64,000 nucleotides of DNA from Bacteroidaceae bacterium (lineage in GTDB: Bacteria > Bacteroidota > Bacteroidia > Bacteroidales > Bacteroidaceae), in NCBI GenBank assembly GCA_017631315.1, contig JAGBTN010000018.1:1-64000 (forward strand). Reading direction: 5' to 3'. This document shows, in pieces, positions 5,408 to 61,478 of the stretch (positions are counted from its first letter, which is position 1; each line of letters begins with the position of its first letter). The notes beneath the pieces were generated by a model that did not search any database, was not told where the DNA came from, and saw nothing but the letters and a program-made list of their open reading frames with translations. The translations under genes and the position numbers were made by a program.

Positions 5408-5601
5408 TTTTTGCACACTTCGTAAAGTGGCGAAAAATAGGCTGAAAAACGTTGAAATTTCGATTTTCTCGAGGAATGTTTGCAGACGGTGCCAGTAACG
5501 TTTGCAAACTATACACGTTAAGTTTGGCTTTTATCCACGTGTAGTTTGCTGTTTACTCACGTTACGTCTGCCCAAACATCAAGTCAAAAAGTGTGCAAAA
5601 A
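5408..5601. repeat. 13-bp inverted repeat bracketing a 22-bp-period array
   Basis: The 13-mer TTTTTGCACACTT at 5408-5420 is exactly the reverse complement of 5589-5601. The two arms enclose the 22-bp-period array at 5476-5585, with 55 bases before the array and 3 after it. The 667-base spacer (5236-5902) holds this bracket, the array and the phosphoesterase promoter; I see no convincing gene in it. Confidence 0.6.
5476..5585. repeat. 22-bp-period array A (five units)
   Basis: Units begin at 5476, 5498, 5520, 5542 and 5564, each exactly 22 bases. The common pattern is (A/T)nGTTTGC/GGC at the left and a right half ending in CACGTT or CACGTG in the middle three units. The array lies downstream of the ATP-grasp gene stop (5903, minus strand) and ahead of the phosphoesterase promoter. 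A sixth, weaker unit may lie at 5454-5475. Confidence 0.75.
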
Positions 5602-5902
5602 CGCCTAAAACCGTTCATTTTTGCTAACTATAATTGCCAATCAGACACTTTTGAATTTTACGATAGTCTTGTAACTTCTTGATTCTCTGTGTTGACTTTA
5701 TTTGAGCGATTTTCTTTGGAAAAATGAACCTAACACTATCCGAAGTCATTTTAAGCGATTCTGGAGCGTTTGCCAAAAATGCGAGTGTAAGCAAAATGTT
5801 GAATTTGCTTACATTTTGTCAAGTGTATAAAACGGGGCAGAGACATGGCAGACTAATCGGATTGTTTAGTTCCGATGCCTTGCAACTTACAATGTTCTGG
5901 TA

Positions 5903-6862
5903 TTAGCCAAACGCTTCGACTTCGGCAGAGTAGTGCCCATAGATGTATTCCACCACCATTCGGCCGAAGCGGCCTTGCTCGGCAGCCAAACAAGAGACGA
6001 GTCCCATTGTCCAACGCCAATTGACTTCGATGCATGGGCAAATGCCTTCCTGGGCCAGCATCATGTCGATGCCGACCGGACCGGAGTAGTTGTATTGGCT
6101 CAGACGCTGTTCCCACCAGGCACGAATCTCCTGAATGTATGCCGGCGGAATGTATTGTGCCAGCCATGCAAGTTTCTGTTCTTCCGGTGCCACAAGGTTT
6201 CCCAGATAGGCTCCTCGCTCGTTGGTATAAAAGAGAGAAAGTCCTCGATACTCGACTCCGCCTTTTCCGTCGAGCCAGAATTCAAGGGCAAAGTCGGTCA
6301 TTTTGTGCAGGAACTGTTCTACAACGACGCTGCCCTGGGCTTTGAGCGTCCGTTTTGCCCATGCTTGCCACTGCGTATTGTTGCTCTGCATCAAGCCCTT
6401 GCCACTGCTGCTCCAAGGGGATTTCAACAAGGCATGGCCATATTTTGCAACGGCCTCCTCTGCCTCTTCCATGCTTTGGCAAAGCACAGATTCGCCTGCA
6501 AGGTGCCCGTCGAGAGGCAGTTGCTCGCGAATTTCCTGCAAAAGGCCAACGGCTGTACGCCTATGGGAGAGTTGTCTCAGTCGTTCAATCTCTTCGGAAG
6601 AAGGCATGAGCGACTCTTGAACGCCAGCCTGCTTCAGTTGATGGCAGAGTGCGGCACTCCATCCCCAAGGCACAATGCGGCAATCATCTGGCAGCGAGAG
6701 CCTGTCTTCGCCATTCCATACGATGTCTCCTTCCTTTGCCCACCACTGCGGAAGCCACCACAATTCGCGGCGCATCTGCTGTATCTGTGCCGGCGGTGTA
6801 TATCCCGGATGCCCGTCGGCGAGGGCCATGTCATTCTCGGGGTTGAAGATGTAGAGTGTCAT
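5903..6862 (-). CDS. ATP-grasp-like protein, function unknown
   Basis: The protein has 319 residues and no signal peptide. It begins with a short conserved piece (LYIFNPENDMALADG) seen in Bacteroidetes hypothetical proteins. The centre has an ATP-grasp-like segment: ALLKSPWSSSGKGL near residue 144, with a nucleotide-binding lysine and a Ser/Gly loop, VVVEQFLHKMTDFALEF near 175, and a C-terminal PCIEVNWRWTMG near 277 that would supply the metal-binding Glu and Asn. This points to a carboxylate-amine or carboxylate-thiol ligase, but no substrate can be named. It starts three bases after the stop of the large glycosyltransferase/DUF4922/SpoIID gene, so the two are certainly co-transcribed and probably work together, perhaps on an envelope polymer (inference). 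Confidence 0.8.
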   Translation of the reverse strand: MTLYIFNPENDMALADGHPGYTPPAQIQQMRRELWWLPQWWAKEGDIVWNGEDRLSLPDDCRIVPWGWSAALCHQLKQAGVQESLMPSSEEIERLRQLSHRRTAVGLLQEIREQLPLDGHLAGESVLCQSMEEAEEAVAKYGHALLKSPWSSSGKGLMQSNNTQWQAWAKRTLKAQGSVVVEQFLHKMTDFALEFWLDGKGGVEYRGLSLFYTNERGAYLGNLVAPEEQKLAWLAQYIPPAYIQEIRAWWEQRLSQYNYSGPVGIDMMLAQEGICPCIEVNWRWTMGLVSCLAAEQGRFGRMVVEYIYGHYSAEVEAFG

Positions 6863-6865
6863 GGT

Positions 6866-9800
6866 TCAGGAGAGACGCTTGATTTGAATGTCGGTATAAT
6901 AGTGTTTCAGTATCTGCTTGTAGCCGTAACCTTGCTCGCCCATCACGGCAGCACCGATTTGGCAAAGTCCTACGCCATGTCCCCAACCGCGTCCATGAAG
7001 AACAAAACGACCAGGAATGCCGTTCTCGACGTCCTTAATCTCAATGGTGAAGGCACTGCTCTTCAAGGTAGATGTGCAGAGCATGCGGCGTATCTCAAGT
7101 TCCTTGCCTACAACAAACTCTTTGTCCTTGCCCACAATGCGCAGTTTGCTGATGTGCCCGCCAGGACCTTTCTCGACAGGTTCCATGTCAAGTATTGCTC
7201 CCAAGTCCGTCTTCAGGTGTGCCGTAATGCGATTGTGAATCTCTTCTTGCGTCAGTTCCTCTGTCCATTCGAGGAAGTCGTGAGTCTCGAGGTCGTAGTC
7301 GTTGAGCACCTGTTTCAGTATCTGTTTGTTGTCTGTGTTGCAGAAGGGGTCTTTGACCGAACGCAGATAGGGGACACTTATATTTTCCCAACAATACTGG
7401 TATTCATTGGTCTGCCCGCCACAACACTTGCCAAAGCGAGTGTCGCAAATCTTTCCGTCGTACATCAAAACCTGTCCGCGAGTGGCATCGACAGCCTTTG
7501 CCACTTGGGGATTGTTTGCCCGGGTAATGCCCTGATAGCGTTGGCAATGGTCGTCGGCACAAACGTCGAAGATGGTATGGTCTTCACGGTCGTACCAGCG
7601 GATGCTCTCTCCTTCGCCTTTGACGAAGGAGAAGAATGGTGCCGGACCGTTTGCCCTTTCCTGACGGCGTTGCATTTGGGCATAAAGCCAACTGCGGGAA
7701 ATGACTGCTGCAGCCTTCAGGAACTCCAGCGAACAACTGCTTTTCATTTCACTGCTGATGACACTCTTCAGATAATCCTCCACGGGCAGAATGTTGATAG
7801 CCACAATCTTGTCTTCTTCGACAACAAGTTTCAAGACACCCTGGAAGGTTTGCGACTCCTTTCGCTCCCAGTGGAAACTTTGTCCGATGGTGACATCATG
7901 CAGAGTGAACGAACCTTCACCTCGGAAGGTCAGTTCTTGATAAACGTTGTCATGCCAGCGAATGCCTCCTTCGGTGTATTCTGCTATTTGCTCACCAACA
8001 ACTTCGTTGCCTTTGGCGTGATAGGGTGTGTTCATGCAGAACCGAAGGACAGTATCCTTCATGATGCCGACAGAAACCTCCTGGCTGAGGCTGATGGTGT
8101 CTTCTTTAGTGTCTTTGCTGTTGAACTCTTCCGGTTTGTCCGTTAGTTGTGCTATGATGGGTTTCAGGGCTTCCGGACTTAGTGTGACTTCTTGCAAAAT
8201 GGCTTGCGCCTTTTCGGAGGTCAGTGCGTTGAAGTCCTGTTCCCTTGGTGTAATGAACAGACCACACATGTCAAGCGCTCCCGGACTTATCATCAACTGC
8301 TCTTCTCCTTCGGCATAATAACAATCCGGACGATGTTTGCTGCGAGGGAAGATAAGTGTAACGAGTTCGTCTGGACGGCTTGCTGTCCCTTCTTGTCTCC
8401 AGCAGACGATATTCAGTCTGGGCTCAGCCTCATTGCCTTCTACAGGGAGAGCATTGTATGTTCTTTGACAAAGGATGCTGTCGCTTTCTGCCGGCATACT
8501 GCGAATAACAAAAATAGGGCAGGCATATCCTTCCAGAATATAGAGTCCACAACGGTTCCCGACATTGCCTGCCTCTTCCATCGTGGCGGTTTGTTCTCCT
8601 GTCAGTGGATAAAGCTTTCGCAGTTTGTTCTCATACATTGCCCAGTCGCGTTCAAGTGGGACAATACCTCTGCTGCCTGCCTGAAGATGCATGTGGTCTG
8701 GGCATGAAGCACCACAAAGAGGACCATTGTAGAAGACCAGATGTTTAGGCATGTTCCATGCCATGCGACGTAGTGTGCCGAAACTGCTGTAAATGCTTTG
8801 TGGCGTGTGACGACGCATTGGAATGGTGAAATGTTGAGGAAGGATGGGGTAAGGGTTGACAAGAATCTGATAATGTTTTTCCGTCATCAGTTTGTGTTGC
8901 TCTTGCGGGCGGTTGATGTCGCAAAGGAAGCAAGGGCGCTCGCTGATGCTTTTCTTGTCAATGCTTGCACCTGTCGAAATGATGCGAGCAGGATTCCATT
9001 GCGCAGCAAGAGACATTTCGCCAAGTGGCAGTTCTTTTGTCTGCACACTTTCCTCTAATGCCTTGTAGCGTTCGGCAGCTTCATGCCATTCGGATAGTTC
9101 TTTTTGGAAGAAATCTTCTACCTCCTCGGCAGTTACTTTGTGTTGCCAAAGCAGGTTGAGTTGTTGGCGTGCCTTAATTTCAAGGCTGCGCAAATGATCT
9201 TTGTATGTATTGTTTTTGTTGATTTTGTCTTGACTGAGGGCAGCATCGCTGTTTCCTTCCCAGCGTCGGCAGAGATAGACCTCATCGTAGATGCGCCCAA
9301 TGCGATACCTTCGGCTTATCATCAAGCCAAGGGCGTAGTCTTCTCCGTAACTTGTGTTAGGTATCTGCAACTCTTGCAGTACTGGTGTAAAGAAAGCGCG
9401 TGGAGCACCCAGACCATTGATGCGCAGAGCATTGTTGCGGCCGTTGTGTTCTGTCCATTCACGATGGTCGATAAGACCTGGTGGAAGCGTGTTCAGTTGG
9501 AAGTCACACATGCGATACGAACCAATCACCATTGCAGCACCTTCGGCGTAGAAGGTATCTACCATTCGCTGCAAGGTTTGTGGCGAAGAGTACAAGTCGT
9601 CGCTGTCGAGTTGCACCACAAAGCGTCCCACCTTCGGGTGATGTACTGCCATATTCCAGCATCCACCGATGCCGAGGTCGTTACGTTCGGGAATGATGTG
9701 TATGACACGTTCGTCGTTCCTGAATTCGTCGATGGCTTCTGTTGTTCCATCGGTGCTTCCATTATCTACGATGATGAGGTTGAAAGGGAATGATGTTTCT

Positions 9801-10567
9801 TGTTCCAGTACACTACGAATGGCATCACGAATGGTGCGCTCACGGTTGCGAACAGGAATGATGACCGATGCCTCGACAGCATACTCGCCTTCACTTAGTT
9901 TCACTTCGTCGTATTCATCTCCGTGGAGATACGCATTCAGTGCACGCAAGTGTCGAGTGCATGCCCGTTCCATTTCCACTTGACGGTTACGGTTGCGTGG
10001 GTCGACATAGTCGAACTGCTTTTGTCCGCTCAGTCGTGTGTCGTGTTCTACTTCAGTATAGAGGAACTCGTCGATGTGCAGAGGTAATTGTTGGCGACTA
10101 ATAAAGAGCCTTAGGTCGTAGAGAGCGGCATACTGGTAGTTATGCAGGTTCTCTTGGCGAGCATATTCTTTCAGGGCAGAAGTGCGGAAGAGGAGCACGC
10201 TGCCCATTTGGAAGTCATCTCGTACAGCACCGAGTTGGCAATCGATGAGTGGCATTGCGTGGCGTTCTCCATCTGGAGTGAGTGTATAGTGGTCGGCATA
10301 GAGCATCAATGCCTTGCTGTCCTCGGCAATGGTGATCCATCGTGTGAGAGCATGATAACCCAGTTGCAGTGTGTCGTACTTTGTATATATAAGAGTATAT
10401 GGTGCACAAGCAGTTTCGGCAATATACTTTATGGTCTTAGTGTTGCCAATGCTTTCTTCTTGCAGGAAATGTATCTCGTTTATGTTTGGTTCTGCCTTCA
10501 GGCATTCCAATGTTCCTTTGGCTTGCTCGTCGCTTTGCCAAGGAATGAAGCAATCGATAGATTTCAT
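6866..10567 (-). CDS. Glycosyltransferase-DUF4922-SpoIID fusion protein
   Basis: The protein has 1233 residues and no signal peptide. Residues 1-215 look like a degenerate glycosyltransferase A domain. Residues 229-450 are a clear family 2 glycosyltransferase ([13 protein letters not shown], then [12 protein letters not shown] and the DSDD metal site). Around 542 comes [11 protein letters not shown], and near 622 DHMHLQAGS, the HxHxQ site of GalT/HIT-type nucleotidyl transferases; this is the DUF4922 region. From about 925 a SpoIID/LytB domain follows ([13 protein letters not shown]) and ends with [15 protein letters not shown] near 1190. SpoIID cleaves peptidoglycan glycan strands in sporulating bacteria, but this organism should not sporulate. 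The gene is coupled to the ATP-grasp gene and has its own promoter box. Joint function is unknown; sugar-nucleotide or glycan handling is the safest inference. Confidence 0.88.
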
Positions 10568-10590
10568 CTTTTAGTTTTTCTTTTCGCCTA

Positions 10591-10598
10591 CAAATTTA
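10591..10598 (-). promoter_or_regulatory. -7 box for the glycosyltransferase/SpoIID operon
   Basis: The minus strand reads TAAATTTG, matching TAnnTTTG, 24 bases upstream of the start codon at 10567. Confidence 0.65.
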
Positions 10599-10617
10599 TG
10601 AAGAAAAAACGAGATTA

Positions 10618-10655
10618 CAAAAAGAGATACTCCGTTTGTTCAAACGAGGTATCTC
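10618..10655 (-). terminator. Rho-independent terminator after the LRR gene
   Basis: A hairpin with outer arms GAGATAC (10624-10630) and GTATCTC (10649-10655) and inner arms CGTTT/AAACG is followed on the minus strand by a T run (CTTTTTG). It lies about 150 bases after the LRR gene stop and before the next promoter. Confidence 0.75.
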
Positions 10656-10708
10656 CAATTAAAGACTTCGACAATACAAACAAAAGTTGTTGTACGTGTT
10701 TCCGGTAT

Positions 10709-10743: not shown

Positions 10744-10805
10744 AAGTTTTCAATTACACAACCATTGCCATCAGGAGTCTTGTAAAGATTTATAGATTCC
10801 TTTTA

Positions 10806-12986
10806 TCAACGCTTTATCAGCACTTTCTTCGTTGTGCCGTCGGCGTTGCGGATGATGTTGATGCCCTTTTGAGCCTTATCAATGCGACGGCCTTGCAGGT
10901 CGAAGCATTCCACTTCACCCACCATAGAAGGATCTGCCTCTATACCATTTATTCCATCGGGATCAAATGCATCGATAAAGAAGAAATCACACCATTGTGA
11001 CGCTGTTTGATATGCAGTAACATATCCCTCTGGAACTTTAAGCATACAAACCCACTTGTCGATATCGTTCAATGCGTCTGTACCACAAGTTGGTGGAGTT
11101 GTAGCACTACTGATAAGTTCTGTCATTGCCGTACAGCCGGAGAATGCTTCCTTGCCAATTGTTGCTACACTTTTGCCAAAATGAAGATAGTCTAAACTAC
11201 TGCATCCGGAAAAAGCCATATCACCAATACTCGTCACACCATCGCCAATAGTAACATCCATCAAATTAGTACAAACTTCAAATGCATTCTTTTCGATGTA
11301 ACCCTTAAAATTGAGTTTCATACTTTTTATACTTGAATTTTTGTAACATATATAAGGATTTACTTTTTTTACAGTGAACATAACATCTTTGTACGTAACA
11401 GTTTCTCCGATCGTGATGTTCTTTGCCAATTCGTTATATGCACAGTCAATAGCATCGCAAGTGCGTTCGGCAGGGTTGACAGGAACATATTTTACGCCAT
11501 CAACCTCAAACATAGAACTCAAATACGGATAAACCACTACATTATCAAGACCTGAGTATGAATTATTAGGTACATAGTTAATGTTTCCTTTTAATTCAGA
11601 ATATGAATCAATATTTGGTTGATTTTTTGCTATCCAGATGACCTTGTGAGGATATACACCTTCAAAAGCATAGCTGCCGATTGATTGAACTCCAGAACCG
11701 ATGGTAACAGAAACCAAACCCGAGCAGTCCTTAAAAGCGTAGTTCCCTATGGTTGTTACGGAGTTAGGTATCGTGATTTCGGAGAGTTCAGTACAGCCTG
11801 CGAATGTATAACTTCCTATACTTGTTAAAGAATTTGGAATAGTAATTGCTTTGAGTTTGATGCAGTTTTCAAATATGCGATTCCTCATACTTGTAACGGA
11901 ATTTGGAATAGCAATTGATACAAGACTTGTGCAATCTCTAAATGTATTGTGTTCTATGGTTGTTATGGAGTTAGGAATTGTGATAGATGTAAGCCCTGTA
12001 CACCCCTTGAATGCACTGTTTCCTATGCTTGTCACTGAGTTCGGGATGGCAATTGATGTAAGACCAGAGCAACCACAGAATGCATACTCTCCTATGCTTG
12101 TTACGGAGTTGGGGATGTCCACAGAGGTAAGACCAGAGCAGCCATCGAATGCACTGTTTCCAATACTTTTAATAGAGTTAGGAATTGTGATTGATGTAAG
12201 TCCAGAATAGCTATTGAATACATAATTTCCGATGCTTGTTACATAACCAGGAATAGTAAGATTAGTTATTTCAGTGGTTTCGTCGCTGTAAAGATGATGT
12301 GCATAATATAAGGGATTTGCAGTATAATCTTCGAACGTAATATTATACCAGGCTTCAATGTTAGGCACAATTACTTTATTAAGTTTTGTACAACCGCTGA
12401 AAGCGCAGGCTTCTATGCTAGTTACGGAATTGCCTATGGTGACGGAGGTCAGACCAGTGCAACCAGAGAATGTAAAGCGTCCTATGCTTGTTACAGAGTT
12501 GGGGATAGTGACAGAAGTAAAACCTGAGCAGCCTTCGAATGCGCAGTTCTCTATGCTTCTAACGGAGTTGGGAATAATGATAGCCTTTAAACCGGTGCAA
12601 TTTTCAAAAGCAAATTTACCTATATTTGTGACGGAGTTACCGATAGTGATTGATTTGAGCCCCGAACAATATCCGAATGCCCATTCCCCTATATTTGTAA
12701 CCGAGTTACCGATGGTGATTGATGTGAGCCCCGAACAATAAAAGAATGCATTATCACCTATCCTTGTAACGTTATAGGCTTTGCCATTAAAAGTAATAAA
12801 AGAAGGGATGACAATATTCCCAGAGTAAGAATAATCACTGATGTTTTTATACGTCACCGTGGCTTCATTTCCGTCGAAGTTGTAGTAGATGCCATTAATC
12901 AGTGCATCGTAAGCAAAAGCATTGGTACTGAATAGACAGGATACTACAAAAAGCAGCATTGCCCAGATGTGTTTTCGTTTTTCCAT
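10806..12986 (-). CDS. BspA-like leucine-rich-repeat surface protein with T9SS-like tail
   Basis: The protein has 726 residues and a classical signal peptide (KHIWAMLLFVVSCLFSTNAFA). From about residue 70 to 460 it holds a run of LRR_5 repeats of 23 residues, with the pattern SVTSIGxxAFxGCxGLTSIxIPN, as in Treponema pallidum and BspA-type proteins. A smaller second repeat block lies at about 570-660. The C-terminus (CFDLQGRRIDKAQKGINI, then KKVLIKR) has the form of the C-terminal tail found on many exported Prevotella proteins and is likely a T9SS signal. BspA relatives bind host proteins and matrix, so adhesion is the likely role. The gene follows an unusual 300-base folded leader with its own promoter and ends at a terminator at 10618-10655. 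Confidence 0.92.
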   Translation of the reverse strand: MEKRKHIWAMLLFVVSCLFSTNAFAYDALINGIYYNFDGNEATVTYKNISDYSYSGNIVIPSFITFNGKAYNVTRIGDNAFFYCSGLTSITIGNSVTNIGEWAFGYCSGLKSITIGNSVTNIGKFAFENCTGLKAIIIPNSVRSIENCAFEGCSGFTSVTIPNSVTSIGRFTFSGCTGLTSVTIGNSVTSIEACAFSGCTKLNKVIVPNIEAWYNITFEDYTANPLYYAHHLYSDETTEITNLTIPGYVTSIGNYVFNSYSGLTSITIPNSIKSIGNSAFDGCSGLTSVDIPNSVTSIGEYAFCGCSGLTSIAIPNSVTSIGNSAFKGCTGLTSITIPNSITTIEHNTFRDCTSLVSIAIPNSVTSMRNRIFENCIKLKAITIPNSLTSIGSYTFAGCTELSEITIPNSVTTIGNYAFKDCSGLVSVTIGSGVQSIGSYAFEGVYPHKVIWIAKNQPNIDSYSELKGNINYVPNNSYSGLDNVVVYPYLSSMFEVDGVKYVPVNPAERTCDAIDCAYNELAKNITIGETVTYKDVMFTVKKVNPYICYKNSSIKSMKLNFKGYIEKNAFEVCTNLMDVTIGDGVTSIGDMAFSGCSSLDYLHFGKSVATIGKEAFSGCTAMTELISSATTPPTCGTDALNDIDKWVCMLKVPEGYVTAYQTASQWCDFFFIDAFDPDGINGIEADPSMVGEVECFDLQGRRIDKAQKGINIIRNADGTTKKVLIKR

Positions 12987-13354: not shown

Positions 13355-13382
13355 AAAAAAATAACCTCCTTGCGGGAGGTTA
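13355..13382 (-). terminator. Rho-independent terminator after the PEP/pyruvate-binding gene
   Basis: Eight-base arms TAACCTCC (13362-13369) and GGAGGTTA (13375-13382) with a five-base loop are followed on the minus strand by seven T residues. It lies 190 bases after the stop of the PEP/pyruvate-binding gene, so array B at 13400-13531 is inside that gene's transcribed 3' region. Confidence 0.8.
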
Positions 13383-13399
13383 AGAAAACACACAAGAGA

Positions 13400-13531
13400 A
13401 CTTCGCCAACTTCTGCAGTGAAGTTGCCCGACTTCTCTGCAGAACTTTGGCAATTACTCTGGAGTGGTTTGGGAGCCTGCCGAGTGGCTGGTTTCTACGC
13501 CTGCAGTCCATTTGGCAAAACGGACGCGTGG
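13400..13531. repeat. 22-bp-period array B (six units)
   Basis: Units start at 13400, 13422, 13444, 13466, 13488 and 13510. The first, second and fifth carry CTGCAG; the third carries CTGGAG in nearly the same column. The sixth is of another flavour (TTTGGCAAAACGGACG). Units one and two form a hairpin: TTCTGCAG pairs with CTGCAGAA and GAAGT with ACTTC around one mismatch. The array lies between the PEP/pyruvate-binding gene stop (13573) and its terminator, so it should be transcribed as 3' UTR. Confidence 0.75.
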
Positions 13532-13572
13532 TGTTGAAAGTTGTCTTTGGGGTTTATGTGGCGATGTGGCCA

Positions 13573-16599: not shown

Positions 16600-16680
16600 C
16601 GAATTATTCCTGAGATAGCCAAACATTTCAACAGCAGAAGAATGAAGGATGGCAGGAGACGGTTGAAAACATGGCGTGCG

Positions 16681-16745
16681 AAGTTGGCCAACAAGGCACA
16701 CCTAATTGGCCGACTTCCTAATTAAGTCGGGCAATTAGGTTGTAG
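16681..16745. repeat. 22-bp-period array C (three units)
   Basis: Units start at 16681, 16703 and 16724 (22, 21 and 22 bases) and share TTGGCC or TCGGGC at the left. Units two and three fold together: CCTAATT and CCGACTT (16701-16716) pair with AAGTCGG and AATTAGG (16724-16739). It lies 25 bases beyond the plsC stop codon and before the next promoter. No T run follows on the minus strand. A weaker unit may precede it at 16659-16680. Confidence 0.65.
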
Positions 16746-23097: not shown

Positions 23098-23185
23098 TAC
23101 CTTAACCATTATTGCCAAAAAGGTTAACCATTCTGTACGGAAAGGTTAGCCTTTTTCTGTAAATAGGTTAACCAATATTTTGCAG
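23098..23185. repeat. 22-bp-period array D (four units, GGTTAACC flavour)
   Basis: Units start at 23098, 23120, 23142 and 23164, each exactly 22 bases. They share a core of (C/G)(C/G)TTAACC or GGTTAGCC in the same columns; the last ends in TTTTGCAG, as in array I. The core is unlike the GTTTGCC of the other arrays, but period and placement just after the pflA stop are the same. Confidence 0.65.
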
Positions 23186-30384: not shown

Positions 30385-30494
30385 CTTCCGGCAAAATTCA
30401 CGTGTGTAGTTGCCCAACTTCTGCAGAGAAGTCGGGCAACTTCTCTGCAGAAGTTGGCGAAGTTCTCTGGAGTGTTTTCAAAACTTCTTTTGAG
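30385..30494. repeat. 22-bp-period array E (five units, CTGCAG flavour)
   Basis: Units start at 30385, 30407, 30429, 30451 and 30473. AACTTCTGCAGAGAAGT at 30416-30432 is the exact reverse complement of 30439-30455, so two neighbouring units form a 17-bp hairpin with a six-base loop. A weaker unit may precede at 30363. It starts 108 bases after the MG2-like gene stop and ends 109 bases before the next promoter box. The 384-base gap holds no gene that I can support. Confidence 0.8.
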
Positions 30495-40301: not shown

Positions 40302-40340
40302 AAAAGTAATAAAATAAACGCTTTATAAGAAGTAATTCCA

Positions 40341-40370
40341 AATTCTTAATTCTTAATTCTTAAATTCTTT
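40341..40370. repeat. Four near-direct copies of AATTCTTA upstream of lptD
   Basis: Three or four copies of AATTCTT(A) lie head to tail just before the lptD -7 box. They could be a binding site series or only simple-sequence drift. Confidence 0.4.
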
Positions 40371-43432: not shown

Positions 43433-43542
43433 TTTTTGCCAAACGACGCACGTGAAGTCGGCAAACTATACACGTGAAGTTTGTCAACTATACACGTTAA
43501 GGCAATAAACTTCTCTCGTGAAGTTTGTTTCTTTCCTGTTTT
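43433..43542. repeat. 22-bp-period array F (five units, CACGTG flavour)
   Basis: Units start at 43433, 43455, 43477, 43499 and 43521. The first four end in CACGTG, CACGTG, CACGTT and CTCGTG in the same columns, after GCCAAAC, GGCAAAC, GTCAAC and ATAAAC. The array lies between the convergent stop codons of lptD and engB. The fifth unit keeps only the left half. Confidence 0.75.
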
Positions 43543-51536: not shown

Positions 51537-51624
51537 GTGCATAAAAAGTTCACACGTTAAAATGCCAAACTTAACGTGTGAACTTTGCCATTTTAACGTG
51601 TATAGTTTGGCAACTTCACCGTAG
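51537..51624. repeat. 22-bp-period array G (four units, ACGTGT flavour)
   Basis: Units start at 51537, 51559, 51581 and 51603. AAAGTTCACACGTTAA at 51545-51560 is the exact reverse complement of 51571-51586, giving a 16-bp stem with a ten-base loop. It lies between the MFS stop (51494) and the GH92 start (51643), ending 18 bases before the GH92 ATG. No -7 box is visible in this gap. Confidence 0.8.
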
Positions 51625-53934: not shown

Positions 53935-53936
53935 AG

Positions 53937-54024
53937 TAGTCTGCAAACTTCTCCTGTGAAGTTCGTCAACTTCTGCAGTGAAGTTTGCCAACATCACTGC
54001 AGAAATTCGTCAACATCACTGCAG
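53937..54024. repeat. 22-bp-period array H (four units) overlapping a gene end
   Basis: Units start at 53937, 53959, 53981 and 54003. The last three carry CTGCAG; all have (A/T)AGT or AAAT then TGCAAAC/TCAAC at the left. It begins two bases after the GH92 stop codon and its last two units reach into the 3' end of the acyltransferase gene (stop at 53994-53996). Confidence 0.75.
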
Positions 54025-55019
54025 GGTATTTTAATCAAATCTTTTTGAGCCGTAAACCAAGGCAGGTACTTCTTCAAGAACCAGCAGCATAGAATAGATG
54101 TGCCGACGGTGAACGTAAAGAAGATGAGGCTTTCTGTCAAACCAGTCTGCTGGTACATCGCTGGCAGGAAATGCTTTGCTGCAACGAGGAGTGTTATGAT
54201 GACCTGATGCGTGCAAAGCATGATGATGGAGTAGCGGCCCACATAAGAGATGATGGGCAACCGGCGAATAATGCTGCTTAAGAGTAGTATAGCCACTGAC
54301 CCTGCCAATCCGGAGACGTAAAGAAGAGGCAGAGGACTGCTGTAGGTGTTGCTGTAAAAGTAATTGTCGCCCATGTACAGGTAATGTATCATTGCAAACA
54401 AAAGCACGGATATGCTCAGGGCCCAGCCCCACTTGAAGTTCTTACCCAACAGATGCAACTTTTTGTTCATGAAATAACCCGACCAGAAGAGTGGCATACA
54501 AGTCAATGCCGTCCCAAAGTTCAAGTGCCAGTTCCCGACATGATAGCCGATTAAACCAACGCCGAACATGCAGATGCCCAATAGAATCTCTCTGCCGACA
54601 GACATGCGTAAGAGTTGGTGCGTAGCATAGTATGCCACAGCAAAGATGATATTCATGAAGAAAAGGCAACGCAGGAACCACAAAGGTCCCCATATTCCGG
54701 CAATGTTTACTCCCGTCGAAGCAAAATCTGTGTAGTTCTGAACCAACCAGGTTATCGCTCTGAATAACAGAATAAAGAAAAGATAAGGGACAAGAATTTT
54801 GTTCGTCTTACGTATGAGAAACTCCCAAAGACCACCAGGATAGTCTTTGAAGAACAGCCCGGAAAGAATGAAATAGAGCGGCATACGCATCTGGTCGAAG
54901 ACTTCATTCAGTGGATAGTTGCCACTCCAAAAGTAACCTTCGTTGGCAACATGGTCCAAAACAACAAGTAGAATGCAGATGCCCTTTGCAAGGTCGATAT
55001 ACCCGATGCGTTCCTTCAT
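53994..55019 (-). CDS. Acyltransferase family 3 membrane protein
   Basis: The protein has 341 residues with about ten membrane segments, typical of acyltransferase 3 (OafA-like) proteins. IGYIDLAKGICILLVVLDH near residue 4 holds the first helix and the conserved active-site His (VVLDH), and PLYFILSGLFFKD follows. These proteins acylate surface sugars or other small groups. The last nine residues or so (PCSDVDEFLQ) and the stop codon are encoded by array H, so the C-terminus differs from a natural family end (see findings). It starts 12 bases after ispF and shares its promoter. The substrate is unknown. Confidence 0.9.
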   Translation of the reverse strand: MKERIGYIDLAKGICILLVVLDHVANEGYFWSGNYPLNEVFDQMRMPLYFILSGLFFKDYPGGLWEFLIRKTNKILVPYLFFILLFRAITWLVQNYTDFASTGVNIAGIWGPLWFLRCLFFMNIIFAVAYYATHQLLRMSVGREILLGICMFGVGLIGYHVGNWHLNFGTALTCMPLFWSGYFMNKKLHLLGKNFKWGWALSISVLLFAMIHYLYMGDNYFYSNTYSSPLPLLYVSGLAGSVAILLLSSIIRRLPIISYVGRYSIIMLCTHQVIITLLVAAKHFLPAMYQQTGLTESLIFFTFTVGTSILCCWFLKKYLPWFTAQKDLIKIPCSDVDEFLQ

Positions 55020-55031
55020 GAATAGGATTGC

Positions 55032-55588: not shown

Positions 55589-55596
55589 CAAAAGTA
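55589..55596 (-). promoter_or_regulatory. -7 box for ispF
   Basis: The minus strand reads TACTTTTG, in the 115-base gap after porV, 78 bases before the ispF start codon. Confidence 0.55.
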
Positions 55597-55626
55597 AATA
55601 GTAAATGGCTAAATGGTAAATGTATT

Positions 55627-56802
55627 TTATCTTCTTCTCATCTTACCGAAGAGGTCGCGCATGCCGTCCAGGTCGAAACCGAGTGAGAAACGCATGGTCT
55701 GGTCCAGAGGATTGGTCTGTGCCGTTGAGAAGACATAGGCAGCATCGACCGAGAAAACACTCATGTGGAAGCCTGCACCGACAGTGAAGTACTTGCGGTT
55801 ACCCTTGTTTTCTGCTTCGTGGTGATAACCGGCACGTAGCATAAAACGGTCGTTGTAGGTATATTCGCAACCAAGACTCCATTGAATCTCCTGCATCTCT
55901 TCCTTGAAACCACCTGGTGCATCACCGAAGCTCTTGAAGATACCGGCAATGGAAGATACATCATAGTAGTCCTTCTCCACACGAGCTGTATATTCTTCTT
56001 CTGCCTCGCCCTCATCTTGTTTGGGGTAGGTAGGCACGAGAAGTTTGTTTATATCTCCGGCAATGCTGAATTTGTTATACTCGTTGAATGGGATTGTCAA
56101 GTTCATACCGATACGTAGGTTTGTTGGTATGAACTCGGAGTAATCACTACCACCGTATGAAATCTTCGAGCCGATGTTGCTAAGATTGATACCCCAACCA
56201 AAACTGCACTCGCGGTTGCCAGCCATGAAGTAGCCCAAACGGTAGAGGGCAATGTCGGCAGAAAATGCCTTGCCGGCACTGCTTTCGGCAGTGTAGTCGT
56301 ATTTGATGTCGGAAAGTATGAAGCGCAGATTGACAGCCATTGAGAAATTCTCACTCAACATACGGCTATAACCGGCATCGATCGCCATCTCGTAAGGCTT
56401 GATAGTCATGTCTTCCATGTCAGAAAGATAAACTTCACCAAGGCTGAAGTAGCGCAAAGAGGCGTGTACGGCACTGTAGTCACCAATACGGTAGAAGCCG
56501 GTCAGGTTTGCCAGATTGATGTCGCTTACCAGTTTGCGAAGCCATGGCGTATAGCTGATGCCAACACCTGCACGGGCAATGTTGAAAGGATATTTTGCAG
56601 GGTTCCAATACTGTGAATAGATGTCGGCTTCTGTTGCTGCACCAATATCGCCCATGGAGCCGCCTCTTGCATCAGGTGCAATGGCTAATGAGGTGACACT
56701 TGTGTTCACAGGGTTGAACATATTTTGCTTGTCCTGTGCCAGGACTGTTCCTGCGCTGCATACAACAAGTAGCAGGATAAGAATGATTCTGTGTGCTTTC
56801 AT
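55627..56802 (-). CDS. porV: T9SS outer-membrane protein PorV
   Basis: The protein has 391 residues from the ATG at 56802, which opens a signal peptide (KAHRIILILLLVVCSAGTVLA). A further in-frame TTG at 56823 lies upstream but gives no better start. The mature part (NPVNTSVTSLAIAPDARGG, MGDIGAATEADIYSQYWNPA) is the PorV/PG0027 type, with alternating strands of an outer-membrane barrel that follow. PorV shuttles cargo proteins and works with the sortase PorU at the cell surface. It lies 26 bases after porU, so they form an operon. Together with PorU it shows that the organism uses the type IX secretion system. Confidence 0.93.
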   Translation of the reverse strand: MKAHRIILILLLVVCSAGTVLAQDKQNMFNPVNTSVTSLAIAPDARGGSMGDIGAATEADIYSQYWNPAKYPFNIARAGVGISYTPWLRKLVSDINLANLTGFYRIGDYSAVHASLRYFSLGEVYLSDMEDMTIKPYEMAIDAGYSRMLSENFSMAVNLRFILSDIKYDYTAESSAGKAFSADIALYRLGYFMAGNRECSFGWGINLSNIGSKISYGGSDYSEFIPTNLRIGMNLTIPFNEYNKFSIAGDINKLLVPTYPKQDEGEAEEEYTARVEKDYYDVSSIAGIFKSFGDAPGGFKEEMQEIQWSLGCEYTYNDRFMLRAGYHHEAENKGNRKYFTVGAGFHMSVFSVDAAYVFSTAQTNPLDQTMRFSLGFDLDGMRDLFGKMRRR

Positions 56803-56828
56803 AACTCTATTATAACTACGCAAGAGCC

Positions 56829-59800
56829 TTATTTATTGTTTAATACCACAATTTTTTGTGCCTTTGTGGTCCATTTGCTATCTCCACACCTTACACTGCA
56901 TCGGTAAAGGTAGATTCCTGTACCAACCCTTGAGCCGGCTCCGTTTGTTAAATTCCATGCAACGCTGTAAACACCGCTTGGTTCGCTTGCTTTTTCTTCG
57001 TGCATCCATATGCGACGGCCGGAGAAATCGAAGACCTCTACAATGAAGTCGCATTCACTGCCGGGAAGGTCGTAACTAATCATGAAGTTTGTTCCGGTTG
57101 TTGCTGGATTTTGGCTTGCCACCATGTGCAGGATGTCTGTCGCCATGGTGTTGTCAACAACGAAGTCGAGTTGTATCTGGCTTGTGTTGTTCAGTACGTC
57201 CCATGCACGGAATGTAAGACTATGTGCGCCATTCGTGAGTGTAGGAATGTTATAGGCAACTGTTCCTTTTGTGAAGTCGCCAAATTCGTTTGAGTAGTAT
57301 TCGTTGATATTATATGTGAGGTCGCTTCTGCCATCGATGCAAAGTGAGAGGTCGTGGCCAATGCCGTTGCCGCTGGAGCTGATGCCGCTAGCATCAGAGA
57401 GTTGTGCCACGAAGAGTGGTGTGGCATTCACTGTGCCACCATTCTGGAACTCTTCGTTGTTGAGGTAAGCATATATCTGTGGGCCGTCTTTGTCGAAGTC
57501 AGTGTTGTCCACAATGCCACCAAGGGGAATGTCTTCGTTGTGTCCGTTTGCTTCGATGTTTCCTGCATCGTTGATGGCATAGAAAACAAAGCGTCCTTCT
57601 TGATTGCTGAAGTTGATGTCAATGGGGATGATAAACTCCTTGCTGAACAAACCTGCTCGAACACTGTCTTGCGATTCGTGTAACAGAATGTTCTGCTCTG
57701 TAAAGACAAATGGTTCAACGTCTTCTCCTGCATTGTTGAGGCAGACGATATTCTCCTTGCTGTCAAACATACGTGTCTGGATTATGCCATTGAAGTCCGT
57801 CATTGTCGTGCCGTCTTCGCGTTCTATATGTCCGGACATCCTTACGCGTTCGCCTGCCTTTAGGGGGATGGAATTGCCATTCACGTCGTGGTCGTTTATT
57901 TTGTCCACAACAATCTTTTGTGTGGGATTGCCTATGGTGAGAGCCGGGTCGCCAAGCAGAGCGTATTGTAACTTGTTCTCAGTGTATCCCGATTCTTTAT
58001 TATCGCTGATGATGCTGTTCTTTGCCAATCGTATTGCATCGCCTATGCGGTTGCGTTCGTTGCTCTTGCCTGTTCTGCGCGAGAAGAGGTATTGCATGAA
58101 GTATCGATTCATGTGATAGTTCTGGCTGGCAAAAACGGTACGGGCAGTGCCATAGAATGCCAAGGCACCTCCGTTGGGATTGAGAACTGCACTCTCGCCG
58201 ATATTCTCGGTGTTCGAATCGAAAGGCATTACGTCGCAAGCGCATGTTACCCACAGAGGTAACTGGGTGCATTTGTTTTCTTCAAAATCACCGCGTAGCA
58301 ATACATTCTCGTGGCTGAAAGCGTGTGTGCCGGCATGTCCGGTATAGTTCATGACGAGTGCACCTTCGCTCATTTGCTTCTTTATTTGTTTTGTAGCTTC
58401 GGGGAAGGTGTTGCTGTTTGGAGAACTAACTCGGGTGTATGCATCCCACATGATTTTGTGTACTTCGATGTCAGGATAGAGTGAGATGGTATTCTCGGCC
58501 ACATTGTTGGCATACCTCATGTGGCTGTTTTTGTCTCCGTCATCGCCAAGGAAGTAAACAAGGTTTTTCCATGAGCCAGCATTTTTGTTGCTCATATATG
58601 TGATGGTCTTGTCCACCATGATTTTAGCATCTGCAGGGCGAGTGACGGGGAATCGGCCAATGCCTATGTCGCTTTTCTCACGTTTGATTTCATAACCTTC
58701 GTTGTCATCGAGTAAGCCGAAGTAGTCTTCCATGACGAAACTTTTTGTGTCGCTGAAGCTGTTTTCGCTTTCGTAGCAGAGAAGATAGTCATCGGGATTT
58801 TTGTTTATCCATGCACCAGAAAGCATTCGGTTGTCCCATGCGCAGTCTCCCATGAGCAGAAGGTAGCGTGGAGCAACGTCAGGGTTCTTGGCCTTGTCGT
58901 AAAGCATCTTCATGAAGAGACGGTAGGCTGTAGGGTCTGGTGTGCCACTGGAGAATTCGTTGTATACTTGGTCGGCACGGACGATGCCTACTCGCAAACC
59001 GTCGTATTGCAGGTGTGCGTCTGCCAGGCGTTGTGCTTCGGAGAGTAATTTGCCGCTGGTGGGGATGATGATAACCATGTCGAGGCTGTCGATGGCGTGC
59101 AGGTTTTGGTTCTCGACATTGCCTTCGATGGTTGGTTCCGGGAAAGTCGCAGAAGGATTGAATGCTACAAAGTGCTGTGTGCCATCGTCAACGCAAATGC
59201 GGTAATGACCTCCATGCTGTGTGCCTTCCACGAGGGCATCTTTTTGACCAACTTTTCCTGTGCGGATAACCTTTACGTTTGAACCTTCAATGTTGAATGC
59301 TGTGACAGCCTTTTCGGTAGAACGAAAGTCAATGTAGTTGGTTGTCGTTATGCTGAGTTTGCGGTCATAGCTATATGCGAGATAGTCTAATCGTGCTCTC
59401 TTCCCAACTTCGGAGCGGATGTGCACGTTGAGATTAGCTGGTGTCCCTCCTTCAAACAGAGTGTCAAGTTCATAGACTCGTTTCGCTTCAGTGGCTTTGG
59501 CATATTCGTCACTATTCGCTGCAACGGTAAATGCAAATGGAACAGTATCATTCAGACTGATATTGACTCTGTTTGATGTGGAGCCGGATGCGGTAAAGAC
59601 CACAGTCAGTTGCCCGTTTCCAACGGGGTCAATGGCAGAGAGCTTGTAACTGTGTGAATTGTTTTTTGCATAGTCATCACCGTCGAAAAGATGACGTCCG
59701 ATGGAGTACCATGCTTCCTTGTCTTTCTCGTATAGGGTGTGCGCCCTCGTCGTGTAAATGTTATGCTGCGGTTCGTATTTAGACGATGCGATGGTTTCTA

Positions 59801-60593
59801 TCTGCGAGGGTGTGTCTTCCTGCGTGAGGAAGTAGCAGGCTTGTCGGGCATAAGTGTTGCTGATGCGTGTATCTTCTTGCCAATGGATGAGGCCATTGCC
59901 CCAGAAAAGCCAGCTGTCTGTCTGTGCATTATAATAGAGTGGCACTTCTACAAGGTCGTCGTGGTGTGTGCCAGGAAAGACATGTTCGGGCAGCAGATAA
60001 CCACCATATCCGTAAAGATGGACGTTGTCGGGATTGGTGAAACCCATCTTTCGGAGTGTGGCACGAGAGAATTGGTAAAGCCCATCTTCTGTGATGCTGA
60101 CCTTTACCCAGGTACCTGTTGCCAGTTTGGAGCTTGTGGCATAGCGACCTGTCTCTGCAATTCTTGTGATGGGAGCGTTTTGCTTGCCGTTCCAAGTGGC
60201 GTTGATGACTATTTGTGCGCTGATGAGCTTCTCGTATCTGCCTGCGTTTTTCCGTATAGGGATGAAGGAAATGTCGAGCAAACCTTTCCCGCGTTCCACA
60301 CCAACGAAGGTCTCTATATCAATGGCTTCACTCAAAAGGCTGTCGAAACGCTCGGCCACTTGTGCTTCCTTACTGCTGAGTGCGGCATATTCCGGGTAGA
60401 GAAGTGCAACTGAATAGGAATGAAGACGATAATCGGTGTTCAATGGTACTACCTCCGTATAGACGGGCAGTACGGAGTCTATCTTCATTTCCTCCCAATC
60501 CAGGCTAGTGAAGCTGAGTCCTTTTTCCTGCTGGGCATTGATGCATTGCATCAGCACCATCAGCATCAGGCATATTGTGAAAAGTCGTTTCAT
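56829..60593 (-). CDS. porU: T9SS C-terminal signal peptidase/sortase PorU
   Basis: The protein has 1254 residues with a signal peptide (KRLFTICLMLMVLMQCINA). The central part is a gingipain-type (C25) protease: the catalytic His is in NYTGHAGTHAF near residue 752 and the catalytic Cys in WVTCACDV near residue 782, about 30 residues apart as in that clan. Immunoglobulin-like segments follow, and the protein ends in its own T9SS-type tail (VEVFDFSGRRIWMH, then GTGIYLYRCSV). PorU cuts the C-terminal signal from cargo and attaches it to A-LPS in Porphyromonas. It is preceded by the FAH gene and followed by porV; the order FAH-porU-porV-ispF is conserved in related genomes (from memory). Confidence 0.95.
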   Translation of the reverse strand: MKRLFTICLMLMVLMQCINAQQEKGLSFTSLDWEEMKIDSVLPVYTEVVPLNTDYRLHSYSVALLYPEYAALSSKEAQVAERFDSLLSEAIDIETFVGVERGKGLLDISFIPIRKNAGRYEKLISAQIVINATWNGKQNAPITRIAETGRYATSSKLATGTWVKVSITEDGLYQFSRATLRKMGFTNPDNVHLYGYGGYLLPEHVFPGTHHDDLVEVPLYYNAQTDSWLFWGNGLIHWQEDTRISNTYARQACYFLTQEDTPSQIETIASSKYEPQHNIYTTRAHTLYEKDKEAWYSIGRHLFDGDDYAKNNSHSYKLSAIDPVGNGQLTVVFTASGSTSNRVNISLNDTVPFAFTVAANSDEYAKATEAKRVYELDTLFEGGTPANLNVHIRSEVGKRARLDYLAYSYDRKLSITTTNYIDFRSTEKAVTAFNIEGSNVKVIRTGKVGQKDALVEGTQHGGHYRICVDDGTQHFVAFNPSATFPEPTIEGNVENQNLHAIDSLDMVIIIPTSGKLLSEAQRLADAHLQYDGLRVGIVRADQVYNEFSSGTPDPTAYRLFMKMLYDKAKNPDVAPRYLLLMGDCAWDNRMLSGAWINKNPDDYLLCYESENSFSDTKSFVMEDYFGLLDDNEGYEIKREKSDIGIGRFPVTRPADAKIMVDKTITYMSNKNAGSWKNLVYFLGDDGDKNSHMRYANNVAENTISLYPDIEVHKIMWDAYTRVSSPNSNTFPEATKQIKKQMSEGALVMNYTGHAGTHAFSHENVLLRGDFEENKCTQLPLWVTCACDVMPFDSNTENIGESAVLNPNGGALAFYGTARTVFASQNYHMNRYFMQYLFSRRTGKSNERNRIGDAIRLAKNSIISDNKESGYTENKLQYALLGDPALTIGNPTQKIVVDKINDHDVNGNSIPLKAGERVRMSGHIEREDGTTMTDFNGIIQTRMFDSKENIVCLNNAGEDVEPFVFTEQNILLHESQDSVRAGLFSKEFIIPIDINFSNQEGRFVFYAINDAGNIEANGHNEDIPLGGIVDNTDFDKDGPQIYAYLNNEEFQNGGTVNATPLFVAQLSDASGISSSGNGIGHDLSLCIDGRSDLTYNINEYYSNEFGDFTKGTVAYNIPTLTNGAHSLTFRAWDVLNNTSQIQLDFVVDNTMATDILHMVASQNPATTGTNFMISYDLPGSECDFIVEVFDFSGRRIWMHEEKASEPSGVYSVAWNLTNGAGSRVGTGIYLYRCSVRCGDSKWTTKAQKIVVLNNK

Positions 60594-60657
60594 GTACGAT
60601 TTGACTATTTACGAATTATTATTTATGTCTTTCTCCTCAGGGGAGTTTTTGTAGGGG

Positions 60658-61299
60658 CTACTTTACGTTGAACTCCAGCACTTTTTCTCCCTCAAGATAT
60701 CCTTCCAGGTGGTCTTCTATGTTGACAGGGCCTACACCTGCCGGAGTTCCTGTGAAGATGATGTCACCCGTTTTGAGTGTGAAGTATTGGCTGATGAAAC
60801 TTACCAATTTATTGACTCCAAACAACATGTCTGCCGTATATCCTGTCTGTACTTGCTTCCCGTTTTGAAGCAGATGGAAATGTAGGTTCTGAACATCTTT
60901 GTCAAAATGTTTCAGTGGCATCCATTTCCCGACGGCGGCACTACCGTCGAAACCTTTGCAGAGATCCCAGGGAAGACCTTCCTGTCGAAACTTTTCTTGC
61001 AGGTCGCGAGCAGTGAAATCGATGCCAACTGTTACTTCGTCGTAGTAGCGGTGTGCAAAACGCTCGGGAATGCTACGCCCAAGATGGTTGATGCGTACAC
61101 AAAGTTCAGTCTCATATTCACATCGTTTTGTGTAAGACGGAATAAAGAAAGGCCGTCCGTCTGTCAGTAGAGCAGAGTCTGCTTTTGTGAAGACAACGGG
61201 CTGACTTCGCTGTGCGGAATCATCTTCTATATTTAATAACGAATTTTGCAGCTCTTTATTGTGTGCTGCATAGTTCATTCCTATACCAAATATCTTCAT
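60658..61299 (-). CDS. Fumarylacetoacetate hydrolase family protein
   Basis: The protein has 213 residues and no signal peptide. The metal-binding motif is near residue 60-75 (CEYETELCVRI, with the two Glu), followed by GIDFTARDLQ and KGFDGSAAVG, and DIIFTGTPAGVGPV near 185 is the classic C-terminal FAH signature. These enzymes cleave acylpyruvates or decarboxylate oxaloacetate; the short form resembles YcgM-type acylpyruvase. It is the first gene of the porU-porV run, probably due to conserved synteny and not a link in function. A near-consensus -7 box lies at 61307-61314. Confidence 0.92.
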   Translation of the reverse strand: MKIFGIGMNYAAHNKELQNSLLNIEDDSAQRSQPVVFTKADSALLTDGRPFFIPSYTKRCEYETELCVRINHLGRSIPERFAHRYYDEVTVGIDFTARDLQEKFRQEGLPWDLCKGFDGSAAVGKWMPLKHFDKDVQNLHFHLLQNGKQVQTGYTADMLFGVNKLVSFISQYFTLKTGDIIFTGTPAGVGPVNIEDHLEGYLEGEKVLEFNVK

Positions 61300-61306
61300 A
61301 TCGGGC

Positions 61307-61314
61307 GTAAAGAT
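61307..61314 (-). promoter_or_regulatory. -7 box (one mismatch) for FAH-porU-porV
   Basis: The minus strand reads TATCTTTA, one base off TAnnTTTG, just before the FAH start codon at 61299 (seven bases). The leader would be almost absent. Confidence 0.5.
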
Positions 61315-61346
61315 ACGAAGAATAGTTTAGAATTAGGAGTTAAAAG

Positions 61347-61478
61347 CAAACAAAAACCTTCTCGCGTGACGTTTTCGCGCACCACTCGTCCACTTTGCCA
61401 AATGGACACGTCCATTTGGCAAACTTCACACGTGAAGTTGCCCAACTTCTCTAGAGTAAATTGCAAACTTCTTTGCAG
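61347..61478. repeat. 22-bp-period array I (six units, mixed flavour)
   Basis: Units start at 61347, 61369, 61391, 61413, 61435 and 61457. TTTGCCAAATGGA at 61394-61406 is the exact reverse complement of 61411-61423, a 13-bp stem with a four-base loop, and AACTTCAC pairs with GTGAAGTT in the next units. Units one to four end in CGCGTG, CTCGTC, CACGTC, CACGTG; the last ends in TTTGCAG. It lies beyond the tsf terminator and before the FAH promoter. A seventh unit may follow. Confidence 0.8.

What the first reader, a model, noticed from the sequence alone, without database searches (positions are those of the whole stretch)
5476..61478. A family of nine intergenic arrays with an exact 22-bp period
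Seen directly: arrays A-I (5476-5585, 13400-13531, 16681-16745, 23098-23185, 30385-30494, 43433-43542, 51537-51624, 53937-54024, 61347-61478) each hold three to six units that keep a 22-base step even where the sequence is badly diverged; one unit in array C has 21 bases. The shared layout is AAGTTTGCCAAAC at the left, then a right half ending in CACGTG/CACGTT or CTGCAG. Spacers of unrelated sequence are absent, so this is not CRISPR. A 22-bp period is close to two DNA turns and would place every unit on the same face of the helix, as for a protein that binds in a row. The period is kept while the letters drift, which suggests that spacing is selected. I know of no named repeat family with these properties. 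Function is inference: protein-binding array, RNA 3' end element or REP/BIME-like element.
Basis: partly seen in the sequence, partly recalled or inferred. Interest (0 to 1): 0.88.

Follow-up and report, generated by a model that had tools for sequence, protein, structure and literature searches.

The report
Spacer-ruled 22-bp palindrome arrays
Between the genes of an uncultured gut bacterium and its relatives lie many short arrays of palindromic sites whose letters change from species to species while their spacing stays at 22 bases, which suggests that a still unknown protein binds them in a row.

Summary
Lag-22 self-identity picks out exactly the nine arrays. In 864 kb of the genome 91 such arrays occur; the next non-harmonic lag has 15. 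Spacing is quantized: GGTTAACC pairs up to 120 bp apart lie only 22, 44 or 66 bp apart, intergenic ACGTGT pairs up to 110 bp likewise. Arrays turned up in 16 of 24 sampled congeners, none in 263 kb from 20 other families of the order. At one orthologous site most units of different species match only slightly better than shuffled units, yet all ten keep period 22. Between sister species 36 of 36 comparable sites hold an array in both; 26 keep their length, 5 differ by one unit. The GGTTAACC core is conserved (3% changed, other intergenic DNA 13%) while spacers change fast (26%), and its arms do not covary, so hairpins fail for that family. Best model, unproven: phased binding-site arrays for unidentified dimeric DNA-binding protein(s) at transcription-unit borders. 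Tests for RAYT-linked REP, BrickBuilt and CRISPR membership failed on defining features.

The parts
5476..5585 (.). Array A, type 1 (ACGTGT/ACACGT-like boxes), 5 units, between two minus-strand genes
13400..13531 (.). Array B, type 1 (CTGCAG boxes), up to 6 units; one of at least 5 dispersed copies of a sub-family that shares flanks with a terminator-like stretch
16681..16745 (.). Array C, weak; followed by GTAGATGTTTT like the type 3 family; periodicity begins near 16645
23098..23185 (.). Array D, type 2 (GGTTAACC core), 4 units, 71 bases from a tRNA-Cys gene
30385..30494 (.). Array E, type 1 (CTGCAG), 5 units, with a long inverted repeat and a T-run after its right end
43433..43542 (.). Array F, type 1, 5 units, between convergent genes; 83% identical in the sister species, same length
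51537..51624 (.). Array G, type 1, 4 units, upstream of a GH92 gene
53937..54024 (.). Array H, type 1 (CTGCAG), 4 units, directly after the GH92 stop codon; the same site holds a 22-bp array in the sister and, with other letters, at 9 further loci from related genomes
61347..61478 (.). Array I, type 1, 6 units, downstream of tsf (EF-Ts); 71-74% identical in the sister, same length

Best explanation
The arrays are rows of palindromic binding sites for one or more unidentified homodimeric DNA-binding proteins that sit side by side at a fixed 22-bp step (about two helical turns, so all on one face). The rows lie in intergenic DNA away from gene starts, mostly nearer the stop codon of the upstream gene or in the middle of divergent regions, and would act as architectural or insulating borders of transcription units rather than as a regulon. 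The 22-bp step is set by contact between neighbouring proteins and is therefore kept; the letters follow the protein's specificity and are replaced between species; recombination between units spreads changes and adds or removes whole units. Shown: quantized spacing, palindromic units, spread through the genus, conserved core with fast spacer in type 2, whole-unit length changes, lack of strand bias. Inferred: that a protein exists, that it is dimeric, and the border function.
For: Exact step: GGTTAACC pairs up to 120 bp apart occur only at 22 (30), 44 (24) and 66 (14) in 864 kb; intergenic ACGTGT pairs up to 110 bp apart only at 22 (22), 44 (11) and 66 (3); CCAGTGACTGG pairs in one congener 7 of 7 at 22. 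Purifying selection on the type 2 core: 8 of 264 positions (33 sites) differ from the sister (3.0%) against 13.1% in other intergenic DNA, p=2.5e-8, while spacer positions differ at 68 of 260 (26%). No hairpin covariation in type 2 (WC 0.42 against 0.48 permuted). No strand bias: GU/AC mismatches 23/17 and 20/30; folding energy of transcribed against antisense strand p=0.36, 0.49, 0.16. Letters are somewhat more alike within a genome than between genomes: 12.9 of 22 in own (630 pairs of loci), 12.8 in the sister (741), 14.1 in 18 others (44 pairs; 12.8 by my arithmetic for the 32 pairs left when G008/L068, one genome counted twice, are taken out), against 11.5 between genomes (7495 pairs) and 10.3 for shuffled units. 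Position: 61 of 75 tandem arrays lie nearer the upstream stop than the downstream start (p=3.8e-8, with own and sister copies of one site counted apart). Genes beside the type 2 divergent arrays are unrelated (10 proteins).
Against: No protein has been identified; only 20 genes near arrays were scanned with Pfam and one transposase family was sought. The type 1 core ACGT is not conserved between sisters (10-15% changed against 13%; 41 sites); TGCA cores change at 0-5% (22 sites) but so do most of their flanks, at 5-10%. So the evidence for selection on a core rests on type 2, which was found only in this genome and its sister, apart from one off-step pair in G082. Type 1 arms around the TTGGCAA-like box do covary (0.38 against 0.27, p=0.0005; 0.57 against 0.45, p=0.001), which fits hairpins as well as dimers. 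In 7 of 18 other genomes with several arrays the units of different loci are as unlike as shuffled ones or nearly so (means 9 to 12). A dispersed sub-family of at least 5 copies shows that copying also happens.
Confidence: 0.42

Rival explanations
1. RNA hairpin ladders: the arrays act at mRNA 3' ends as (bidirectional) terminators or exonuclease barriers, and palindromy is kept for base pairing.
For: Predicted folding of all nine arrays is stronger than shuffles on the + strand (z -2.6 to -5.0) and on the - strand except array D (z -1.2; others -2.3 to -5.8); palindromic units at p<0.05 against column-permuted units in 55 of 91 own, 33 of 48 sister and 26 of 45 genus arrays; nearness to stop codons; type 3 elements look like a long hairpin between an A-run and a T-run; type 1 arms covary around one box; gene ends in short convergent gaps with an array have no outside terminator (0 of 6 against 21 of 40, p=0.025; there may simply be no room).
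Against: No GU enrichment or strand asymmetry; no arm covariation in type 2; few compensatory changes between sisters (6, against 1-3 in shifted registers, with 28 pairs broken and 31 gained by one change); ordinary terminators stand beside many arrays (17 of 34 gene ends in long convergent gaps); 15 of 91 own arrays lie between divergent genes; does not explain an exact 22-bp step across unlike sequences.
Confidence: 0.22
2. A non-autonomous mobile or driving repeat (MITE or REPIN-like) of a genus-specific enzyme that copies 22-bp units between loci; the letters drift as families in each genome.
For: Units more alike within than between genomes; a dispersed sub-family of at least 5 copies with shared flanks; type 3 elements with fixed ends CTACTG...CAGTAG, length 8+22k.
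Against: All 36 comparable sites hold an array in both sister species, so no recent insertion or loss was seen among them; no common terminal motif outside type 3; no Y1/RAYT-type transposase in this genome, the sister, G005, G008 or G035 (these are drafts of 72-89% completeness); no target duplication was shown.
Confidence: 0.21
3. Neutral minisatellites of common descent: an ancestral 22-bp repeat was inherited at many sites and homogenised by slippage and template switching, without function.
For: Whole-unit gain and loss (5 of 36); array-wide substitution rate close to other intergenic DNA (12.2% against 13.1%); residual likeness of units at one orthologous site; template switching can make palindromes without selection (recalled).
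Confidence: 0.15

Closest known systems
BrickBuilt minisatellite/MITE of Porphyromonas gingivalis (PMC4596501; abstract and passages seen)
   Same: Intergenic in all its loci; tandem short units (23 nt) without spacers; 19 loci in one genome
   Different: 23-nt unit with a fixed consensus (AGAYCATARTATCCTCTCRTRTG), leader and tail with IS5-type inverted ends, described in one species; here 22 bp, palindromic, letters differ by species, no general ends
REP / REPIN-RAYT elements (PMC3116915, PMC3733652; search listing only)
   Same: Short extragenic palindromes in high copy, diverse sequence families
   Different: No Y1/RAYT-type transposase found in this genome; exact 22-bp step; GTAG-type end only in the small type 3 family
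PINSR, Prevotella intermedia/nigrescens repeat (PMC4755523; abstract and passages seen)
   Same: Lineage-specific intergenic repeat in high copy in the same phylum, no terminal inverted repeats
   Different: 188-bp dispersed unit with a consensus sequence, not described as a 22-bp tandem
Tandem operator or iteron arrays (recalled)
   Same: Short phased protein sites in a row, about two helical turns apart
   Different: Those stand at one or a few loci; here about 280 per genome by extrapolation (91 in 864 of 2684 kb)

Membership tests
REP/RAYT | palindromic, extragenic, high copy | tested here: met
REP/RAYT | cognate Y1 (RAYT) transposase in the genome | tested here: not met
   PF01797 not found in own, sister G023, G005, G008, G035; found in 6 of 41 genus genomes; own genome 86.6% complete
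REP/RAYT | GTAG/CGTC-type tag at the foot | tested here: inconclusive
   no common end motif; CTACTG...CAGTAG ends in 8 type 3 elements
BrickBuilt MITE | 23-nt unit of the published consensus | tested here: not met
   period 22, other letters
MITE | terminal inverted repeats | tested here: inconclusive
   only type 3 and one sub-family show shared ends
MITE | insertion polymorphism between relatives | tested here: not met
   36 of 36 comparable sites hold an array in both sisters, six of them below the 28 of 44 limit in one
CRISPR | near-identical repeats with unrelated spacers, and cas genes | tested here: not met
   neighbouring units 68-86% alike in ten arrays, type 2 spacers of 14 bp with shared AT-rich arms; cas genes were not searched
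Intrinsic terminator | hairpin directly followed by a T-run | tested here: inconclusive
   of 90 own gene ends with an array in the gap, 33 have a terminator outside the array, 18 only at its edge, 39 none
Protein-binding site array | a protein binds it | not testable with these tools
   no binding data
Protein-binding site array | conserved core at fixed phase | tested here: met
   type 2; type 1 has the phase but no core-specific conservation
Rfam family | match at gathering score | tested here: not met
   only a tRNA in the window

The most novel reading that the evidence does not exclude
A genus-wide chromosome-organising system in which the geometry is inherited rather than the sequence: dimeric proteins with fast-changing DNA specificity coat rows of palindromes at a strict 22-bp step at the borders of transcription units, and the sites of a genome are rewritten in step with the protein, much as centromere repeats and their proteins co-evolve.
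Probability: 0.22. Interest if true: 0.9.

Novelty: new variant of a known kind. Interest (0 to 1): 0.72.

Why it matters
Bacterial intergenic repeats are defined by sequence; here most of the sequence is lost between species while step and dyad stay, so a sequence search misses much of the family (the sequence model found it in 9 of 61 genomes, own included). If a protein is responsible, it would be a new architectural or insulator system in gut bacteria and a bacterial case of co-evolution between dispersed repeats and a trans-acting factor. The type 2 core GGTTAACC at a 22-bp step is a ready bait for a pull-down.

Tried and rejected
RNA strand test: GU against AC mismatches and folding energy of the transcribed strand showed no asymmetry. 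Consensus folding of two-unit rows gave no structure. Compensatory changes between sisters were too few to decide. A first result, that arrays strongly prefer convergent gaps in relatives (15 of 28 against 2 of 43 divergent), was inflated because many of those loci are anchored on one gene with a convergent array; in 864 kb of the own genome the bias is weak (19 of 46 convergent, 50 of 167 tandem, 15 of 61 divergent, convergent against divergent p=0.09), and in 19 stretches not anchored on that gene it is 3 of 13, 6 of 77 and 1 of 26. Terminator replacement looked clear in 464 kb (outside terminator at 8 of 18 convergent gene ends with an array against 12 of 14 without) but weakened in 864 kb (17 of 34 against 23 of 32 in long gaps, p=0.08; short gaps p=0.025) and was not significant in the sister (11 of 22 against 8 of 12, p=0.48). 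Avoidance of GTTAAC elsewhere, as for a restriction site, was not seen beyond the mild deficit of other palindromes. A 9-mer core of another species group (CGTATAGTG) had no pair in the 61 genomes drawn, so it could not be counted. Plasmid records gave no match to array F. Literature: the listings shown for searches hold no paper on such a repeat in Bacteroidales other than BrickBuilt and PINSR (one search showed 15 of 27 papers, 8 of 12, 6 of 8); most subscription papers are not held.
Full report
Check of the observation. Counting identities at a fixed lag in 44-bp windows, lag 22 gives nine clusters of at least 27 of 44 in the window, and these are the nine arrays; lags 20, 21 and 23 give none and lag 24 gives one. 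Tandem Repeats Finder reports a 22-bp period for five of them (A, E, F, H, I).

Extent in the genome. The window is the first 64 kb of a 251.6-kb contig of a 2.68-Mb draft genome that is 86.6% complete. A sequence-only model of two units built from the window found 228 matches at E up to 1 genome-wide, with 150 of 1453 candidates scored. In 864 kb taken from five contigs, 91 arrays pass 28 of 44 at lag 22, 50 at the harmonic 44, and at most 15 at any other lag from 12 to 60 (lag 12); 3 of the 91 fall in called genes and 1 at an edge (genes called by a script of mine). If that density holds there are about 280 arrays per genome (extrapolation).

Three sequence families, one step. Type 1 carries ACGTGT/ACACGT or CTGCAG boxes and includes window arrays A, B and E-I. 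Type 2 has the core GGTTAACC and includes array D. Both often share a TTGGCAA/TCGGGCAA-like box half a unit away. Of the 91 own arrays a simple letter count puts 43 in type 1, 26 in type 2 and 22 in neither. The step is exact: GGTTAACC pairs up to 120 bp apart are 22 (30), 44 (24) or 66 (14) bp apart and at no other distance in 864 kb; of 95 occurrences 79 lie in arrays, 13 in other intergenic DNA and 3 in genes. Intergenic ACGTGT pairs up to 110 bp apart are 22 (22), 44 (11) or 66 (3) bp apart. Intergenic CTGCAG pairs lie within 2 bp of the multiples except two (9 and 63), as expected if the box stands on either side of a 2-nt spacer. A small type 3 with ends CTACTG...CAGTAG has intergenic lengths of 30, 52, 74 (seven times) and 96, that is 8+22k (10 pairs from 8 elements), while 7 chance pairs in genes have other lengths. 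A palindrome repeated with period 22 has by symmetry a second dyad 11 bp on, so the two dyads are one fact, not two.

Spread. In stretches of 24 congeners 16 hold at least one array at 28 of 44 (about 10 to 40 kb per genome; the sister is one of the 24; 5 of the 40 stretches were chosen near model hits, and G005, G026 and G035 are positive only through them). The sequence model itself reaches only 9 of 61 genomes, own included. Lag 22 is zero in 262.8 kb from 20 genomes of 20 other families of the order and in 706 kb of 35 loci of other organisms that encode a GH92 relative, and in the more distant GH92 loci L077-L081 and in L073. In the genus sample lags 21 and 14 also rise (22 and 21 clusters against 45 at lag 22), so single weak arrays there should not be over-read.

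One site in many species. Right after the GH92 stop codon period 22 is found in 10 of 21 loci examined (32 to 42 of 44), a shortened remnant in one (L066, 23 of 44), and not in the other 10, several of which have other neighbouring genes. The majority units of ten such arrays (own and nine others) were compared in the best rotation and strand: 40 of 45 pairs match at 10 to 14 of 22, five at 17 to 21 (close pairs, and own with L068). Shuffled units give 10.1 on average and 12 at the 95% point, and 25 of the 45 pairs exceed 12. So site and period are inherited, and of the letters only a faint likeness is left between most species. A genome-private core was found in G016: CCAGTGACTGG, 7 of 7 pairs at step 22 on 5 contigs, absent from the other 60 genomes. 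Within a genome, loci are somewhat more alike than between genomes: 12.9 (own, 630 pairs), 12.8 (sister, 741), 14.1 (18 other genomes, 44 pairs), against 11.5 between genomes (7495 pairs) and 10.3 for shuffled units. In 7 of the 18 the mean is 9 to 12, so sharing is not general.

Evolution between sister species. L061 comes from a roe-deer colon MAG (RGIG4268) that is 92.5% identical over 22 kb. In the aligned parts 36 array sites were compared (33 of the 91 own arrays and 3 detected only in the sister). All 36 show the periodicity in both genomes, six of them with a score of only 23 to 27 of 44 in one. Net length differs by 0 in 26, by one unit in 5, and otherwise in 5. In 154 control windows of 120 bp in other intergenic DNA 59 differ (Fisher p=0.0056). 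Detection at lag 22 favours in-register arrays, so this depletion is an upper estimate. Some arrays change several units alike, for example three TTCACGTG to TTAACGTG in the array at contig position 183119. In type 2 the eight core positions differ at 3.0% (8 of 264) and the spacer positions at 26% (68 of 260), against 13.1% in other intergenic DNA. Type 1 ACGT cores differ at 10-15%; TGCA cores at 0-5% in 22 sites, but most of their flanks are nearly as quiet, so type 1 shows no core-specific constraint.

Position. Tandem arrays of this genome and its sister lie nearer the upstream stop in 61 of 75 cases (p=3.8e-8, with orthologous sites counted twice). In divergent gaps most lie in the middle, typically 100 to 500 bp from both starts. 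The preference for convergent gaps is weak in this genome. Genes next to type 2 divergent arrays are unrelated (GH43, GH97, a TPR protein, calcium exchanger, porin, peptidase M24, OmpA, ProRS, pantothenate kinase, Lnb).

Hairpins or sites. Units are palindromic beyond chance and the arrays fold well as RNA (array D not on the minus strand), but there is no sign that one RNA strand is selected. In type 2 the arms pair no better than when right halves are dealt out anew (0.42 against 0.48 in own, 0.42 against 0.47 in the sister), which speaks against hairpin selection there. In type 1 the arms around the TTGGCAA-like box do covary (0.38 against 0.27; 0.57 against 0.45), around ACACGT weakly (0.44 against 0.40, p=0.013) and around ACGTGT not (0.52 against 0.52). 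Ordinary terminators often stand beside arrays.

Reading. A conserved palindromic core, a fast spacer of fixed length, one step for unlike motifs, no strand bias and borders of unrelated genes fit rows of sites for a dimeric protein best. The protein is not known, and the case is strong for type 2 only. The same facts leave room for a driving repeat, for hairpins in types 1 and 3, and for neutral homogenisation.

Known systems. BrickBuilt (PMC4596501, abstract and passages) has a 23-nt unit of fixed sequence with IS5-type ends. PINSR (PMC4755523, abstract and passages) is a dispersed 188-bp repeat. REPs are linked to RAYT transposases, and none was found here (REP papers seen only in the listing). 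No paper on this repeat stood in the listings.

Noticed in passing
window 13356-13540 and C17:32696, 232123, 242734, 276035 of the own genome: A dispersed sub-family of at least five copies joins an array to a terminator-like stretch and, in three of the five, to an AT-rich promoter-like stretch with TATAACTTTGC or TGTATCTTTGC; it looks like a ready-made border module.
   Followed up: partly
L038:8312, L041:19447, L043:3409 and five more places of the own genome: Type 3 elements AAAACATCTACTG...CAGTAGATGTTTT with length 8+22k between the CTACTG and CAGTAG ends, shaped like bidirectional terminators; GGTTAACC occurs inside some.
   Followed up: partly
own contig C19 126185-126914 and 200977-201696, C3 66975-67576, C16 28377-28973: Four related gene ends; three of the four carry an array after the stop codon, one does not.
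   Followed up: partly
window 53994-55019: Array H overlaps the last 31 bases of the convergent acyltransferase reading frame, so the array supplies its last codons or the call is too long.
   Followed up: no
window 5294-5324, 40333-40369, 55594-55622: Three short period-7 runs (AAAAGAG, TAATTCT, GTAAATG).
   Followed up: no
window 11954-12770: 69-bp repeats inside a BspA-type leucine-rich-repeat gene (PF13306).
   Followed up: partly
window 178-265: A 24-bp period, the only cluster besides lag 22 among the lags 20 to 24 examined.
   Followed up: no
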